A stretch of 11,832 nt of DNA from an uncultured Lachnospiraceae bacterium (GTDB lineage Bacteria > Bacillota_A > Clostridia > Lachnospirales > Lachnospiraceae): positions 1 to 11,832 of the forward strand of contig CAMOGO010000015.1 of assembly GCA_946614075.1 (NCBI GenBank), read 5' to 3'. Positions 1,266 to 11,832 of this stretch are shown here, piece after piece (the stretch's first letter is position 1; the number at the start of each line of letters is the position of its first letter). Under the pieces are notes generated by a model that made no database searches, was not told the DNA's origin, and saw nothing but the letters and a program-made list of their open reading frames with translations. The position numbers were made by a program, and so were the translations under genes.

Positions 1266-1355
1266 TGTGTCAGTGGGGACGGCTCTCAGGGTGACAACGG
1301 GGACGGTTCTCAGTGTCACCCCTCGGTGACACTGAGAACCGTCCCCACTGACACA
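1266..1355. repeat. REP-like palindromic element (two direct copies and one inverted copy)
   Basis: Three copies of a roughly 25-30 base motif with core GGGGACGGTTCTCAG. Copy 1 (1266-1295) and copy 2 (1299-1320) are direct; copy 3 (1325-1355) is inverted. Copies 2 and 3 form a perfect 22-bp stem with a 4-base loop (CCTC, 1321-1324). Copies 1 and 3 share an outer 24-base arm with one mismatch. The right edge directly abuts the yhaM stop codon (1356-1358). No T-tract follows on either strand, so a simple intrinsic terminator is unlikely. From memory, GGGGACGGTTCT-type palindromes are widespread in Clostridia and resemble REP elements moved by IS200/IS605-like or RAYT transposases. No transposase is present here. 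Confidence 0.85.
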
Positions 1356-2303
1356 CTAGAACGTCTGTGTGGTGGTGCGGCGGATGTTGGAGTCCACCAG
1401 CTTGTTGAAGCCGAGCCACTCATTATTCTGGGCGCCGCTCAAAAGCTCCGCCATCATCTCGAGCTTGGCGTCGAGATTGTCCGCCATGCTGAGGGCCAGG
1501 GCCTCGATCAGGGCAGGCTTTTTCGGGGAACCAAACTCAAACTCGCCGTGGTGTGCCAGGATGCAGTGCTTCAGCTCGGAAGCGGTCTTTTTCGGGAAGT
1601 CCGGCATAGTGCTTAGCTTCTCATCGACCATCTCCACGCCGATCACGATGTGGCCTAAAAGCTGGCCGTCGTCGGTGTAGTCGTTCTCCGGGAAAAGAGA
1701 GATCTCGCGGGTTTTGCCGATGTCGTGGAACATCGCGGCGGTCAGGAGCATGTCGCGGTTCACGGTGGGATAATTCTGCGCGATGTAGTCGCAAAGCTTC
1801 ACTACGCCAAGGGTGTGCTCCAGAAGGCCTCCGACGAAGCCGTGGTGGATGGACTTGGCGGCGGAGTGGCTCTTGAAGGACTTGATAAAGGCAGCGTCAT
1901 TCACGAAGAACTCGCTGGCCAGCTGGCGCAGGTGGTCGTTTTTCAGGCTGCTGATGTAGCGCAGCAGCTCTTTGTACATTTCCTCGATGTTCTTCGAGGA
2001 AACGGGCAGATAGTCTGCCGGGAAGTACTCGCCCTCATCGGCGACGCGGACTCTTTTGATATTCAGCTGGAGCTGTCCGGCGAAAACGGTGACGTCTGCG
2101 TCGACGCGTACATAGTCCATTGGCTCAAAATGGCCGATTCCGTTGTTGACATCCCAGATCTTGGCATTGACCAGGCCGGTCTTGTCCTGCAGGATCAGGG
2201 AATAGTAGGTTTTTCCGTTCTTGGTCTTTGCTACCTGCTTGGATTTGCACAGGTACACCTCTCCGATCCGGTCTCCTTCACGGAGAGCTTCGATATATCT
2301 CAT
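1356..2303 (-). CDS. yhaM: 3'-5' exoribonuclease YhaM family (OB fold + HD domain)
   Basis: Predicted cytoplasmic metal-dependent 3'-5' exonuclease acting on RNA (and single-stranded DNA in the Bacillus homologue). It is 315 residues, matching the usual ~314 of YhaM. Residues 10-95 form an OB-type nucleic-acid-binding region (SLILQDKTGLVNAKIWDV, then the strand around LQLNIKRVRV). Residues 150-285 are an HD phosphohydrolase domain with its metal ligands visible: H163 in LLEHT, H193-D194 in MFHDIGK, H218 in LLGHI, H251-H252 in LAHHGE and D275 in MADNLD. The start ATG is preceded by AGGAAGGAAG. The gene lies between the HtrA-like gene (106-bp gap upstream) and rlmD, all on the minus strand, so a shared transcript is plausible. 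A REP-like hairpin begins at the first base after the stop and could shape the 3' end of the mRNA. Confidence 0.93.
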   Translation of the reverse strand: MRYIEALREGDRIGEVYLCKSKQVAKTKNGKTYYSLILQDKTGLVNAKIWDVNNGIGHFEPMDYVRVDADVTVFAGQLQLNIKRVRVADEGEYFPADYLPVSSKNIEEMYKELLRYISSLKNDHLRQLASEFFVNDAAFIKSFKSHSAAKSIHHGFVGGLLEHTLGVVKLCDYIAQNYPTVNRDMLLTAAMFHDIGKTREISLFPENDYTDDGQLLGHIVIGVEMVDEKLSTMPDFPKKTASELKHCILAHHGEFEFGSPKKPALIEALALSMADNLDAKLEMMAELLSGAQNNEWLGFNKLVDSNIRRTTTQTF

Positions 2304-4056: not shown

Positions 4057-4137
4057 GAAAGCAAAGCGAGGATGCGAACGAATGGACGATGAGTTTACTC
4101 ATCGGACAATCGTTTATCCACGCGCAACAAAACGAGA
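4057..4137 (+). ncRNA. structured leader element, copy 1 (upstream of mutS2)
   Basis: A long hairpin that recurs at 11718-11804. Base stem GGAT 4070-4073 with ATCC 4116-4119; middle stem AACGA 4077-4081 with TCGTT 4110-4114; an internal loop with a possible tandem G-A pair (GGA 4084-4086 facing GAC 4105-4107); and a perfect apical stem CGATGAG 4087-4093 with CTCATCG 4098-4104, loop TTTA. A single-stranded tail CGCAACAAAACGAGA follows. Compared with copy 2, the stems differ by paired changes that keep pairing, while GAGGATGC, GGACGA, TCGGACA and the tail are kept. This suggests a conserved RNA (cis leader or small RNA) or a mobile palindromic element. I do not recognise it as a known riboswitch class. 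Confidence 0.6.
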
Positions 4138-4142
4138 ATCCT

Positions 4143-4156
4143 CTCCTCGAAAGGAG
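4143..4156 (+). promoter_or_regulatory. hairpin masking the mutS2 ribosome binding site
   Basis: CTCCT (4143-4147) can pair with AGGAG (4152-4156) over a CGAA loop. The second arm is the Shine-Dalgarno sequence of mutS2 (AAGGAG, 11 bases before the ATG at 4168). The stem is short (5 bp), but its position right after the structured element makes translational control of mutS2 possible. Confidence 0.45.
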
Positions 4157-4167
4157 TCCTTTGCTTC

Positions 4168-6573
4168 ATGAACGATAAAGTACTGCGTACTCTCGAATAC
4201 GATAAAATCCTGGCAATGCTTACCGAGCTTGCCGCTACGCCTGCCGGAAAGGAAGCCTGCCGGTCGCTTGTCCCGATGGACGATGTGCAGGAAATCCGGG
4301 ATGCTCTGGCCAATACGACCGACGCCGTGACCAGGCAGTTTAAAAGCGGCACCGTTGCCTTTGGCGGCGTAAAGGACATCCGGGATTCCTTGAAGCGGCT
4401 TGCCGTCGGCTCTGTGCTCACGATCCCGGAGCTGATGAATATTGCCTCTTTGCTGGAGGTGGCCGCCCGGGTCAAGGCGTACAACCGCAAAGATTCCGAG
4501 GAGATCCTGCCGGACAGTCTGGATCCTTATTTCGACGTCGTCGAGCCAGCTCCGTCCCTGTGCCGGGAGATCCGCCGCTGCATCCTTTCCGAGGATGAGA
4601 TCAGCGACGATGCTTCCCCGACCTTAAAGGGCATCCGCCGGCAGCTCCATGCCCTCGATGACCGGATCCACGCGCAGCTGAATTCTCTCCTGCTCTCGAG
4701 CCAGGACTACCTGCAGGATCATGTCATCACCATGCGAGACGGCCGCTACTGCCTGCCGGTCAAGGCCGAGCACAAATCCCGCGTCGCCGGCATCGTCCAT
4801 GACCAGTCCTCGAGCGGTTCGACCTTTTTCATCGAGCCGATCGCCGTGGTGCGCCTGAACAACGAAGGCAAGGAGCTGGAGCTGGCCGAGCGGAAGGAGA
4901 TCGAGGTCATCCTCTCCTCCCTGAGCAACCAGGCTGCGCTGGAGGCTGACCACCTGGCCGCCGACTATGAAGTCCTGTGCAAGCTGGATTTCATTTTTGC
5001 CAAGGCCTCTTTATCCCGTAAAATGAAGGGCAGCGAGCCCGTTTTCAATACCGAGGGCATCATCCGCTTAAAGGATGCCCGTCATCCGCTGCTTGACGCG
5101 AAGCGTGTCGTCCCGATCACGGTCACCCTCGGCGAAAGCTTTGACCTTCTGATCGTGACCGGCCCGAATACCGGCGGCAAGACGGTCTCCTTAAAGACCG
5201 TCGGCCTCCTCTCCCTCATGGGGCAGGCAGGCCTTCACATCCCGGCCTTCGAAGGCTCACAGCTTTCCGTTTTCCCGGAGATTTACGCCGACATCGGCGA
5301 TGAGCAGAGCATCGAGCAGAACCTCTCTACCTTCTCCTCCCATATGGTAAACATCGTTTCCATCCTGGAGAAGGCGGATCCTAGCTCTTTGTGCCTGTTT
5401 GACGAGCTCGGGGCCGGTACCGACCCGGTTGAGGGCGCCGCCCTTGCCATGTCGATCCTGACCTTCCTGCACAATATGAAAACCCGCACGATGGCCACGA
5501 CGCACTACAGCGAGCTGAAGCTTTTTGCCCTTTCCACGCCGGGCGTGGAGAACGCCAGCTGTGAATTTGACGTCAATACCCTCCGCCCTACCTACCGCCT
5601 GCTGATCGGTATCCCGGGAAAAAGCAATGCCTTTGCGATCTCGTCGAAGCTCGGCCTGCCGGACTACCTGATCGACCAGGCCCGCGAGTTCATCGGCGAG
5701 CAGCAGCTGTCCTTCGAGGATGTCATCACCGACCTGGAGAACACGCGGACCGAGCTGGAAAAGGAGCAGGAGGAGGCCTCCCGCTACAAGGAAGAGATCA
5801 AGCGGCTGCGCGAGCGTCTCTCCCGTTCCAACGAGAACCTGGAGGAAAAGCGTGAACGCATGATGCGCGAGGCGAATGAGGATGCGAAGAAGATCGTCCA
5901 GGAGGCGAAGAGCTTTGTCGATGAGACCATCCGCAATGTCAACCGCATCACCGACGACACGAATATCCGCCGCGAGCTGGAGAAGGAGCGCCGGGCGGCG
6001 AATGAGCGCCTGAACCAGCTGAATGAAAAGCTTGCGTACCAGGCGCCCGCCAAAAAGAAATCGAACCGCCCCGAGACCTATCACGTGGGCGACAAGGTCA
6101 AGGTCCTGTCCCTGAATCTGAGCGGTACCATCAGCACCCTGCCGGATGCCAAGGGGAATCTTTATGTCCAGATGGGCATCCTGCGCTCGAGCGTCAACGT
6201 GAACGACATCGAGCTGCTGCAGGAGGATACGATCAATGGCCCTGCCGGCGCGGCCGGCGGCTCCCGGAAGCAGAAGGCCAACGCGAGCGCGATCAAGATG
6301 GGCAAATCGATGTCCATTTCCCCGGAGGTCAATGTCATCGGCAAGACCGTCGATGAGGCCGTCCCGATCGTGGATAAATACATCGACGACGCATGGCTGG
6401 CGCATCTGGAGCAGGTGCGGATCATCCACGGCCGAGGCACCGGCGCTTTGAAAAAGGCGGTGCAGGGTCTGCTGAAAAGGAATAAACATGTCAAGAGCTT
6501 CCGCCTCGGTGAATTTGGCGAGGGAAGCGGCGGCGTCACCATCGCCGAGCTTGACTATGGGAAGAAGAAGTAA
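4168..6573 (+). CDS. mutS2: MutS2 family ATPase / Smr-domain protein
   Basis: 801 residues, the usual size for MutS2 (~785). The N-terminal core/lever region (1-~310) lacks the mismatch-recognition domain of MutS1. The ATPase has Walker A TGPNTGGKT (331-339) and Walker B/D-loop LFDELGAGTDP (D412 at its centre). Residues about 515-630 are a charged coiled-coil segment, about 640-690 a small beta domain (YHVGDKVKVLSLNLSG), and about 718-801 the Smr domain with IIHGRGTGALKKAV (752 onward). MutS2 binds collided ribosomes in Bacillus subtilis and suppresses recombination in Helicobacter pylori. The usual LDLRG motif opening the Smr domain reads VNVIGKT here (721-727). The start is set by AAGGAG at 4151-4156. 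It is transcribed away from the htrA-like gene behind a structured leader. Confidence 0.95.
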   Translation: MNDKVLRTLEYDKILAMLTELAATPAGKEACRSLVPMDDVQEIRDALANTTDAVTRQFKSGTVAFGGVKDIRDSLKRLAVGSVLTIPELMNIASLLEVAARVKAYNRKDSEEILPDSLDPYFDVVEPAPSLCREIRRCILSEDEISDDASPTLKGIRRQLHALDDRIHAQLNSLLLSSQDYLQDHVITMRDGRYCLPVKAEHKSRVAGIVHDQSSSGSTFFIEPIAVVRLNNEGKELELAERKEIEVILSSLSNQAALEADHLAADYEVLCKLDFIFAKASLSRKMKGSEPVFNTEGIIRLKDARHPLLDAKRVVPITVTLGESFDLLIVTGPNTGGKTVSLKTVGLLSLMGQAGLHIPAFEGSQLSVFPEIYADIGDEQSIEQNLSTFSSHMVNIVSILEKADPSSLCLFDELGAGTDPVEGAALAMSILTFLHNMKTRTMATTHYSELKLFALSTPGVENASCEFDVNTLRPTYRLLIGIPGKSNAFAISSKLGLPDYLIDQAREFIGEQQLSFEDVITDLENTRTELEKEQEEASRYKEEIKRLRERLSRSNENLEEKRERMMREANEDAKKIVQEAKSFVDETIRNVNRITDDTNIRRELEKERRAANERLNQLNEKLAYQAPAKKKSNRPETYHVGDKVKVLSLNLSGTISTLPDAKGNLYVQMGILRSSVNVNDIELLQEDTINGPAGAAGGSRKQKANASAIKMGKSMSISPEVNVIGKTVDEAVPIVDKYIDDAWLAHLEQVRIIHGRGTGALKKAVQGLLKRNKHVKSFRLGEFGEGSGGVTIAELDYGKKK

Positions 6574-8942: not shown

Positions 8943-9170
8943 GTGGGAGATATTCTGAGCTATAAGAGAAGCAAGGAACTAAGCCAGGAAGTAAGCTATC
9001 AACTAAGCTATGAAGTGGGATATCAACTAAGCTATAAAGTGGGATATCAACTAAGCTATAAAGTGGGATATCAACTAAGCTATGAAGTGGGATATCAACT
9101 AAGCTATGAAGTGGGATATCAACTAAGCTATGAAGTGAGCTATGAACGAAGCAAGGAGGGTTATCTATGA
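8943..9170 (+). CDS. hypothetical 75-residue tandem-repeat ORF overlapping the aldolase start
   Basis: An open frame from GTG (8943, with AGGAAA 7 bases upstream, beginning inside the kinase stop) to TGA (9168-9170), which overlaps the aldolase ATG as ATGA. Nearly the whole product is a four-residue pattern, [LV]-[SG]-Y-[QEK], with LSYE-VGYQ as the commonest pair. It is bracketed by RSKE near both ends. Reasons to take it seriously: repeat length is a multiple of three, a plausible ribosome binding site, and the 4-base overlap typical of coupled genes. Reasons for doubt: GTG start, no recognised family, and codons (CTA, AGA, GGA, GTA) unlike the CTG/GGC/CGC use next door. It may be a leader peptide, a translated spacer, or no gene at all. 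Confidence 0.35.
   Translation: MGDILSYKRSKELSQEVSYQLSYEVGYQLSYKVGYQLSYKVGYQLSYEVGYQLSYEVGYQLSYEVSYERSKEGYL
8997..9140 (+). repeat. 24-bp tandem repeat, six units, with 12-bp sub-period
   Basis: Six head-to-tail units begin at 8997, 9021, 9045, 9069, 9093 and 9117. The unit is TATCAACTAAGC plus TATGAAGTGGGA; units 2 and 3 have TATAAA in the second half and unit 6 ends GAGC. Both 12-base halves share TAT-AA-T, so the basic period is 12. Diverged 12-base units continue in phase on both sides (8956-8996 and 9141-9160), including AGAAGCAAGGAA at 8968-8979 and CGAAGCAAGGAG at 9148-9159. The near identity of the central units points to recent expansion and probable length variation between strains. 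Confidence 0.93.
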
Positions 9171-10933: not shown

Positions 10934-11039
10934 TGACCAGCCTAAAGGCTGCTGCAAAAAGACAGCTCCAGAGAAAGCTCCAGGGAAGCTTCCAGTTTTG
11001 TAACTTGTTTACCTGCCTGGTTTTCATGAGTGTTTCGAC

Positions 11040-11363
11040 CAGCACAGGGAAATACCCTTTGCTACGACCCGGTTACCTGCCCTGTTTCTTTCGATAAGTT
11101 TGAGCAGCACAGGGAAATACCCTTTACTGCGGCTTGCTTACCTGCCCTGTTTTTTTGATTAATTCGACCAGCACAGGGAAATACCCTTTACTGCGACCCG
11201 GTTACCTGCCCTGTTTCTTTCGATGAGCTTGAGCAACACAGGGAAATACCCTTTGCTATGGCTTGCTTACCTGCCCTGTTTCTTTTGATGAGCTTGAGCA
11301 GCACAGGGAAATACCCTTTGCTTTGGCTTGCTTACATGGGATTTTGAAAAGTTGTAGAAATGA
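11040..11363. repeat. tandem array of five ~65-bp hairpin-bearing repeats
   Basis: Units start at 11040, 11105, 11169, 11234 and 11299 (period 64-65), each opening CAGCACAGGGAAATACCC (fourth copy CAACACAGGG). A diverged partial unit precedes at about 11000-11039. Each unit can pair ACAGGG with CCCTGT about 30 bases on, followed by a T-rich stretch (eight T after the second unit, 11150-11157), so each resembles a terminator hairpin; the fifth unit lacks the CCCTGT arm. Two subtypes alternate: GACCCGGTTACC (units 1, 3) and GGCTTGCTTACC (units 2, 4), indicating duplication of a ~129-bp dimer. No convincing protein is encoded. Confidence 0.9.
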
Positions 11364-11585: not shown

Positions 11586-11642
11586 AACTGCCACAGATAT
11601 AACGAACTGCCACAGATATAACGAACTGCCGCAGATATAACG
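11586..11642. repeat. three 19-bp tandem repeats copying a terminator arm
   Basis: Three units (11586-11604, 11605-11623, 11624-11642) of AACTGCCACAGATATAACG; the third has G for A (GCCGC). A partial fourth unit, AACTGCCGC, forms the start of the left arm of the strong hairpin at 11643-11672. All three units can therefore pair in part with that hairpin's right arm. Confidence 0.9.
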
Positions 11643-11678
11643 AACTGCCGCACGGTTTCCCGTGCGGCAGTTCTTCTA
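11643..11678 (+). terminator. strong stem-loop, probable intrinsic terminator
   Basis: Perfect 13-bp GC-rich stem: AACTGCCGCACGG (11643-11655) with CCGTGCGGCAGTT (11660-11672), loop TTTC, followed by TTCTTCT on the plus strand. The T-tract is interrupted, so efficiency is uncertain. It is the best terminator candidate downstream of eda-dgoK, but about 800 bases away. On the minus strand the following GTTATATC is a poorer tract. Confidence 0.6.
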
Positions 11679-11717: not shown

Positions 11718-11804
11718 GAAAGCGGAGTGAGGATGCCAAACAGTTCGGACGAAGAGCTCGCTCTTCGGACAGCTGTTTGCATCCGAGCGAGCAACAAAAC
11801 GAGA
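11718..11804 (+). ncRNA. structured element, copy 2
   Basis: Same design as the element at 4057-4137. GGATGC (11731-11736) pairs with GCATCC (11779-11784); AAACAG (11738-11743) with CTGTTT (11773-11778); the apical stem CGAAGAG (11750-11756) with CTCTTCG (11761-11767), loop CTCG. The internal loop keeps GGA facing GAC, and the tail GCAACAAAACGAGA (11791-11804) is kept. The last 28 bases of the window (11805-11832) contain AGGAACGAAGTGACTGG; no gene start is visible before the edge, so what it precedes is unknown. Confidence 0.6.
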
Positions 11805-11832
11805 CAAAAAGGGACAGGAACGAAGTGACTGG

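What the first reader, a model, noticed from the sequence alone, without database searches (positions are those of the whole stretch)
4057..4137. Two-copy structured element with compensatory base changes (second copy 11718-11804)
Both copies start GAAAGC, keep GAGGATGC, GGACGA, TCGGACA and end CAACAAAACGAGA, but differ inside the helices in ways that preserve pairing. In the apical stem CGATGAG/CTCATCG became CGAAGAG/CTCTTCG (a T-A pair swapped to A-T), and in the middle stem AACGA/TCGTT became AACAG/CTGTT. The internal loop keeps a possible tandem G-A motif (GGA opposite GAC). Conserved loops and tail with covarying stems are the signature of a selected RNA fold. One copy is the leader of mutS2; the other faces whatever lies right of the window. 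It could be a new cis-regulatory RNA family, a small RNA, or a REP-like mobile element.
Basis: partly seen in the sequence, partly recalled or inferred. Interest (0 to 1): 0.72.

Follow-up and report, generated by a model that had tools for sequence, protein, structure and literature searches.

The report
Cloverleaf mobile repeat in mutS2 leader
The two matching folded sequences look like copies of a short jumping DNA element that carries no gene, and its nearest described relative is a family catalogued so far as a small RNA of unknown function.

Summary
In detail: two homologous copies with covarying stems lie at 4057-4137 and 11718-11804. The cis-regulatory reading does not hold for the family. 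The stretch is one arm of a longer cloverleaf element. A related genome (G315, MutS2 76% identical) carries at least 33 copies, in every orientation to neighbouring genes, mostly right behind a T-run (TTTTTAT). The same mutS2 leader in G315 lacks the element and is 105 nt shorter (the insert is about 111 nt), so copy 1 is probably an insertion, with the likely Shine-Dalgarno of mutS2 inside it. Of 15 G315 loci tested, 9 match Rfam RF01699 (Clostridiales-1, sRNA of unknown function) above its cut-off. The window copies are shorter and do not match, so I call them relatives, not members. RF01699 itself behaves as a transposable element. It matches 214 of 397 genomes of the family (176 over the cut-off). 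Of 64 well-preserved copies with both ends readable, 36 are flanked by exact 5-bp and 8 others by exact 6-bp direct repeats (shuffles: 2.1 and 0.2 on average; none of 1000 reaches either number). Best read as a MITE. The transposase is unknown, target duplications are not shown for the window or G315 copies, and any effect on mutS2 is untested.

The parts
4057..4167 (+). Copy 1: probably a complete short element (about 111 nt) inserted in the mutS2 leader
   Evidence: R3, built only from G315 copies, finds 4057-4137 at 51.6 bits, E 5e-14. The orthologous G315 leader lacks it; intergenic length is 261 in the window and 156 in G315.
4057..4066 (+). 5' strand of the closing stem (GAAAGCAAAG)
   Evidence: Pairs with 4159-4167; the same stem covaries in 21 G315 copies.
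4066..4123 (+). Arm I hairpin with GGA/GAC internal loop
   Evidence: RNA fold; 17 of 22 pairs with changes on both sides in 25 distinct copies, alignment fitted to the model.
4125..4137 (+). Conserved CAACAAAACGAGA; in G315 the homologous CAACAAAATGAG is the 5' strand of arm II
   Evidence: The 3' strand of arm II is absent here.
4143..4156 (+). Small hairpin CTCCTCGAAAGGAG holding the putative Shine-Dalgarno AAAGGAG (4150-4156) of mutS2
   Evidence: Sequence; hairpin listed. Function inferred.
4159..4167 (+). 3' strand of the closing stem, CTTTGCTTC, directly before the mutS2 ATG (4168)
   Evidence: compare the G315 3' ends TTTGCTTTCATG.
4168..6573 (+). mutS2 (801 aa), the gene whose leader was invaded
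   Evidence: TIGR01069 mutS2, 955.7 bits, cut-off 400.
11718..11832 (+). Copy 2: 5' part of a second element, probably cut by the window end
   Evidence: R3 67.1 bits, E 7e-19 for 11718-11804.
11731..11784 (+). Arm I of copy 2 (GGATGC...GCATCC)

Best explanation
Both copies belong to a dispersed mobile element of the MITE kind, too short to code for much, and related to Rfam's Clostridiales-1. A full copy is about 180-210 nt. Its two ends pair with each other and between them lie up to three arms, so one strand folds as a cloverleaf. Shown: high copy number and sharp left boundaries in G315, paired ends, and, for RF01699 copies of other genomes, terminal repeats with direct 5-6 bp repeats in AT-rich DNA on both outer sides. 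Inferred: a transposase made elsewhere recognises the ends, makes a staggered cut and inserts the element; internal deletions give short derivatives such as copy 1. In the window lineage one such derivative landed just before the start codon of mutS2. The leader RNA would begin at or near the element, fold as arm I plus small hairpins, and start translation from a Shine-Dalgarno inside the element. Whether that changes mutS2 expression is not known.
For: Homology free of training bias: R3, built from 18 G315 copies without the window, finds both window copies (E 5e-14 and 7e-19). Dispersal: 23 model matches in G315; 35 hits of the 5' motif with up to 1 mismatch against 1 for the reversed pattern. 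Boundary: TTTTTAT directly before the element (T at -5 in 31 of 33, A at -3 in 25 of 33), no clear preference beyond about -8. End pairing: two end pairs are G-C in 8 and A-T in 12 and 13 of 21 copies with both ends, 40-289 nt long. Empty site: same gene order in G315 without the element. Link to RF01699: 9 of 15 G315 loci tested pass the cut-off, best 96.3 bits. RF01699 as transposon: 214 of 397 genomes, 0 of 14 control genomes; exact 5-bp repeats in 36 of 64 copies against 2.1 expected, exact 6-bp repeats in 8 others against 0.2, 0 of 1000 shuffles each; similar stretches in 1 plasmid record and 11 phage records.
Against: The window copies do not match RF01699 even at E 10, and R3 does not find the six canonical RF01699 loci tried, so the link rests on G315 and G133 as a bridge. 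Copy 1 shows no target duplication (flanks printed). A duplication test on G315 copies was inconclusive (best of nine settings 7 observed, 4.2 expected, 133 of 2000 shuffles as high). No transposase with matching ends was found, and only the Y1 family was sought. No whole genome of the window's organism is held, so its copy number is unknown. The maintained cloverleaf is more than a plain MITE needs and could mean an RNA-level role.
Confidence: 0.84

Rival explanations
1. A cis-regulatory leader RNA of mutS2 and other genes: arm I senses something and opens or closes the Shine-Dalgarno hairpin.
For: Copy 1 lies in the mutS2 leader with the Shine-Dalgarno in a small hairpin. Two G315 copies (L111, L113) are also followed directly by a Shine-Dalgarno and ATG. 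Strong covariation.
Against: All gene orientations occur. Absent from the orthologous leader in G315. Downstream genes were not tabulated by name, so a shared target was not formally excluded. Weinberg et al. mark Clostridiales-1 as probably not cis-regulatory (PMC2864571, Table 1 passages).
Confidence: 0.06
2. An independent small RNA (the Rfam annotation) that is present in many copies and happens to lie in mobile surroundings.
For: RF01699 is typed as sRNA. The + strand folds better than the - strand in 19 of 19 genomes, one copy each, without a shuffle control for energy. A TATAAT-like hexamer lies within 16 nt upstream in 54 of 80 copies against 62 of 480 control windows.
Against: Near-identical copies with unrelated left flanks within one genome and direct 5-6 bp repeats outside both ends indicate that the element itself moved. 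The TATAAT excess may follow from the AT-rich target ATWWTA. The G-U excess on the + strand (34 against 18) is also seen in shuffles (138 against 92).
Confidence: 0.08
3. A REP moved by a RAYT or another Y1 (IS200/IS605-like) single-strand transposase.
For: G315 encodes 9 matches to Y1_Tnp, two in frames of 255 and 271 aa. T-rich left side and hairpin ends.
Against: In none of the 9 loci do the element's ends flank the gene (L156 lies near a copy, several loci are cut by contig ends). Target duplications of RF01699 copies are, as recalled, not a feature of Y1 transposition; they were not shown for the G315 copies.
Confidence: 0.1

Closest known systems
Clostridiales-1 RNA (Rfam RF01699; Weinberg et al. 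2010, PMC2864571, passages seen)
   Same: Closing stem plus three arms; G315 relatives match model positions 1-166 above the cut-off.
   Different: Window copies lack most of arms II and III and do not match the model. Rfam types it as an sRNA; the copies read here continue past the Rfam model to an end repeat and have direct repeats outside.
bcr1 repeats of the Bacillus cereus group (passages in PMC6542083; Okstad et al. 2004 not held)
   Same: 100-400 bp mobile repeat, on average 39 copies per strain, TTTAT motif associated with mobility; G315 copies follow TTTTTAT.
   Different: No sequence comparison made; the first BCR is described as restricted to the B. cereus group.
Pneumococcal BOX and RUP elements (passages in PMC3049150)
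   Same: Modular, folded, found in 5' and 3' extensions of operons; a BOX lies between two T-box riboswitches, as one G315 copy lies behind a lysine riboswitch and one G133 copy behind a T-box leader.
   Different: Other modules; cloverleaf fold here. No sequence comparison made.
Group IIC introns (terminator targeting recalled; only a search listing seen)
   Same: G133 relatives sit behind host terminators and their T-tract (6 of 8 measured).
   Different: Far too short; intron features were not sought. G315 copies show no terminator preference.

Membership tests
Clostridiales-1 (RF01699) | Covariance model score at or above gathering (48 bits) | tested here: not met
   Window: none at gathering, E 5 or E 10. 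Relatives: 9 of 15 G315 loci and 1 of 3 distinct G133 copies tested pass.
Clostridiales-1 (RF01699) | Closing stem with three arms | tested here: not met
   Copy 1 keeps the closing stem and arm I and has only two small hairpins in the predicted fold; copy 2 is cut. Full G315 copies have all.
MITE | Many dispersed short copies without a gene | tested here: met
   In G315: 23 model matches, 33 copies examined, 40-289 nt where both ends are readable. Lack of coding inferred from length. Not testable in the window's own genome.
MITE | Terminal inverted repeats | tested here: met
   Paired ends in 21 of 33 G315 copies and in copy 1. RF01699 copies, read by eye in L224: TGATACCAGGGTCAAAAGGT against the reverse complement of the 3' end, TGATGTTGGGGTCAAAAGGT, 16 of 20 alike.
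MITE | Target site duplication | tested here: inconclusive
   Met for RF01699 copies (36 of 64 at 5 bp, 8 others at 6 bp). Inconclusive for G315, none seen for copy 1, copy 2 not testable.
MITE | Mobilised in trans by an identified transposase | tested here: inconclusive
   None found among 9 Y1_Tnp loci; other transposase families not searched.
Cis-regulatory leader RNA | Same-strand position before genes across copies | tested here: not met
   All orientations among 33 G315 copies and 80 RF01699 copies.
REP of a RAYT | Short palindrome flanking a Y1 transposase gene | tested here: not met
   within 1.5 kb flanks of 9 loci, several cut by contig ends.

The most novel reading that the evidence does not exclude
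Clostridiales-1 and its relatives are a widespread class of transposable elements in which the transcribed cloverleaf is itself part of the life cycle, for instance bound by the transposase or protecting the transcript. They seed ready-made folded leaders and trailers next to promoters, terminators and riboswitches, and some, as at mutS2, have taken over a gene's translation start.
Probability: 0.15. Interest if true: 0.75.

Novelty: new variant of a known kind. Interest (0 to 1): 0.52.

Why it matters
An Rfam family filed as a small RNA of unknown function looks like a transposable element that matches about half of the genomes sampled in one large gut family (214 of 397 at E 1e-3, 176 over the cut-off). 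That would explain its copy number and missing gene link, and it warns that covariation alone does not prove a regulatory RNA. It also gives these bacteria a common source of new folded leaders, with mutS2 as a clear case of an insertion at a translation start.

Tried and rejected
Strict patterns of the two copies found nothing in viral contigs, genome contigs, 15 genomes or 7 genomes; a pattern of the G315 copies found nothing in viral contigs. BLAST of the copy 1 stretch found nothing in plasmids and of the copy 2 stretch nothing in phages; a full G315 copy found nothing in either. Direct Rfam search of the window gave no RF01699 and only sub-threshold matches that I take for chance.

Other model hits: besides G315, R1 gave weak matches in G226, G072 and G256 (25-33 bits), which on reading are a different three-armed repeat or its pieces. 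R2 matched 7 of 395 genomes: G315, G133 and five weak ones (27-30 bits), of which L162 looks like coding sequence and the others are hairpins that I did not follow.

A tandem-GA site as family signature was dropped because G315 copies lack it; the motif recurs in the G226 repeat (32 hits; 2 of 397 genomes in all), which also folds with three arms.

Terminator targeting as a general rule was dropped: G133 6 of 8 against 14 of 171 controls (p 2e-5), but G315 3 of 26 against 50 of 320 (p 0.79). My notebook line that G133 copies always follow a terminator is too strong: of 16 BLAST matches 8 were measured, one further copy (L179) had no run of four T, and two weak motif matches (L188, L189) had no T-run. 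The notebook's place 4157-4165 for the 3' stem strand is wrong; it is 4159-4167.

Strand asymmetry of G-U pairs as evidence for RNA was dropped after a shuffle control. The empty-site test for copy 2 failed because G315 gave no match to the neighbouring kinase-like protein. A search for a larger element sharing the RF01699 3' end gave nothing usable in plasmids.

Full report
Observation. Both copies are present as described, and the paired changes are real. No whole genome is held for it.

Finding relatives. A covariance model from the two copies (R1) matched 4 of 397 genomes of the family of G001, the genome of an uncultured Lachnospiraceae MAG. One, G315, has 23 matches when all its candidates are scored; its MutS2 is 76% identical to the window's. 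A model built only from 18 G315 copies (R3) finds the window copies at 67.1 and 51.6 bits (E 7e-19 and 5e-14), so the homology does not rest on a model trained on the window. R3 also finds four G133 loci at 42-47 bits, but none of six canonical RF01699 loci and nothing in the G315 mutS2 locus L117.

Anatomy. I examined 33 G315 copies: the 23 above plus 10 from a search for the 5' motif (35 hits with up to 1 mismatch, 1 for the reversed control). Hit L142 was dropped as a chance match, and hits for which no locus was given were not read. The sequence before the element shows no clear preference up to about position -8 and then reads TTTTTAT. In 21 of 33 copies a 3' end is recognisable (elements of 40-289 nt), and it pairs with the 5' end; two pairs are G-C in 8 copies and A-T in 12 and 13. 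This may reflect two subfamilies and not many independent changes. Full copies fold with a closing stem and three arms: 27 of 66 pairs have a double change among 8 copies, and one copy has z -10.1. For arm I, 17 of 22 pairs have changes on both sides in 25 distinct copies, and no shuffle of 500 reaches this. That alignment was fitted to the model, and the copies are related.

Genes nearby. In G315 the element lies in every orientation to its neighbours (++9, --12, -+6, +-5, one unclear; crude ORF calls). The mutS2 locus of G315 has the same gene order and no element. The intergenic distance is 261 in the window and 156 in G315, so the 105-base difference fits the 111-base insert. Read by eye, the insert begins within what aligns to the old Shine-Dalgarno region (CTAAG|GAAAGC against TATAAGGAGG) and ends at the ATG. 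A Shine-Dalgarno-like AAAGGAG (4150-4156) lies inside the insert. A promoter scan found no consensus promoter there.

Link to a named family. Rfam search at gathering of six loci gave RF01699 Clostridiales-1 in G315 loci L081 (54.2 bits) and L093 (50.0), cut-off 48, and not in L157 (G133), L082 (G226), L159 or L160. Of 13 further G315 loci, 7 pass (57.8-96.3 bits), one lies below for its element (L103, 37.5 bits), and five (L099, L101, L110, L114, L115) gave no match at E 0.01. Of three distinct G133 copies tested (L157 and L174 are the same place) one passes (L175, 60.1). The window copies never match. I therefore describe them as shortened relatives.

Is RF01699 mobile? In 397 genomes of the family of G315 RF01699 matches 214 at E 1e-3 (176 over the cut-off), with at most 7 candidates scored per genome; by my count of the listing about 80 genomes reach that ceiling; 0 of 14 control genomes match. 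I fetched 80 copies from 19 genomes, chosen from the top of that listing and so biased to well-preserved copies. Within a genome they are nearly identical, with unrelated left flanks. On the right they continue past the Rfam model through a hairpin to ACATCA. In 64 of 80 the 3' end was recognisable by that motif; the rule was set after I had seen some repeats by eye. Of these 64, 36 (from 12 of 16 genomes) have identical 5 bases on both outer sides; exchanging right flanks gives 2.1 on average, at most 8 in 1000 shuffles, and shifting the right end by one to three bases gives 0-8. Another 8 have identical 6 bases (0.2 on average in shuffles, at most 4). The target is AT-rich (roughly ATWWTA). 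These are direct repeats, as a staggered transposase cut leaves, and not extensions of the inverted ends. Gene orientation is mixed (-+23, --22, ++20, +-9, six unclear, of 80; 7 of 80 fall inside a crude ORF call). One such copy as query matched one plasmid record (Butyrivibrio fibrisolvens, three places) and 11 unannotated phage records from human faeces, three over at least 80% of the query.

Variation between lineages. In G133 most measured copies follow host terminators with their T-tract (6 of 8 with a stable hairpin against 14 of 171 control T-tracts; exceptions are told under Tried and rejected). In G315 there is no such preference (3 of 26 against 50 of 320; 7 of 33 dropped for lack of a T-run), and target duplications could not be shown. 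One G315 copy lies behind a lysine riboswitch, and one G133 copy behind a T-box leader match below its cut-off.

Literature. Weinberg et al. 2010 list Clostridiales-1 as probably an RNA, probably not cis-regulatory, in Clostridiales and human gut; the words mobile, transposon and repetitive element do not occur in that main text, and its additional files, where motifs are discussed further, were not seen (passages). Searches for Clostridiales-1 and RF01699 in the held library gave listings of 3, 2 and 3 papers, none of which has mobility of this element in its title or the part of its abstract shown. Bcr1 and BOX/RUP are the closest described kinds that I found (passages).

Verdict. The finding is a real structured repeat. 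It is best explained as a MITE-like mobile element related to Clostridiales-1; the mutS2 copy is probably an insertion in one lineage. The mobiliser, the role of the fold and the effect on mutS2 are open.

Noticed in passing
window 1266-1357: Palindromic REP-like stretch built on GTGTCA...GGGGACGG; similar repeats lie near a Y1_Tnp gene with a 271-aa frame in G315 (L155).
   Followed up: partly
window 8953-9160: Tandem 12/24-bp repeats (AACTAAGCTATGAAGTGGGATATC) directly before the start of a KDPG-aldolase-like gene at 9167.
   Followed up: no
window 10981-11338: Five copies of a 64/65-bp repeat with CAGCACAGGGAAATACCC.
   Followed up: no
window 11586-11652: 19-bp repeats AACTGCCACAGATATAACG.
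   Followed up: no
L099 1406-1819: A G315 copy lies directly behind a lysine riboswitch (RF00168, 103 bits) with a terminator-like hairpin, and before a gene whose start looks like dapA (name recalled).
   Followed up: partly
L177 1228-1591: A G133 copy lies just behind a T-box leader match (80.2 bits, below gathering 93).
   Followed up: no
L082, L086, L164-L173: Another high-copy three-armed repeat in G226 (32 pattern hits) with ends CAGCACCCC...GGGGTGCTG and the same GGA/GAC hairpin as the window; G226 also has RF01699 matches.
   Followed up: partly
L220-L299: 54 of 80 RF01699 copies have a TATAAT-like hexamer within 16 nt upstream (control 62 of 480); perhaps only the AT-rich target, but it could place the element at transcription starts.
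   Followed up: partly
L110, L141, L093: Three G315 copies have TTTTAT or TTTTTAT again 4-39 nt after the closing stem, which may be target duplications; the overall test was inconclusive.
   Followed up: partly
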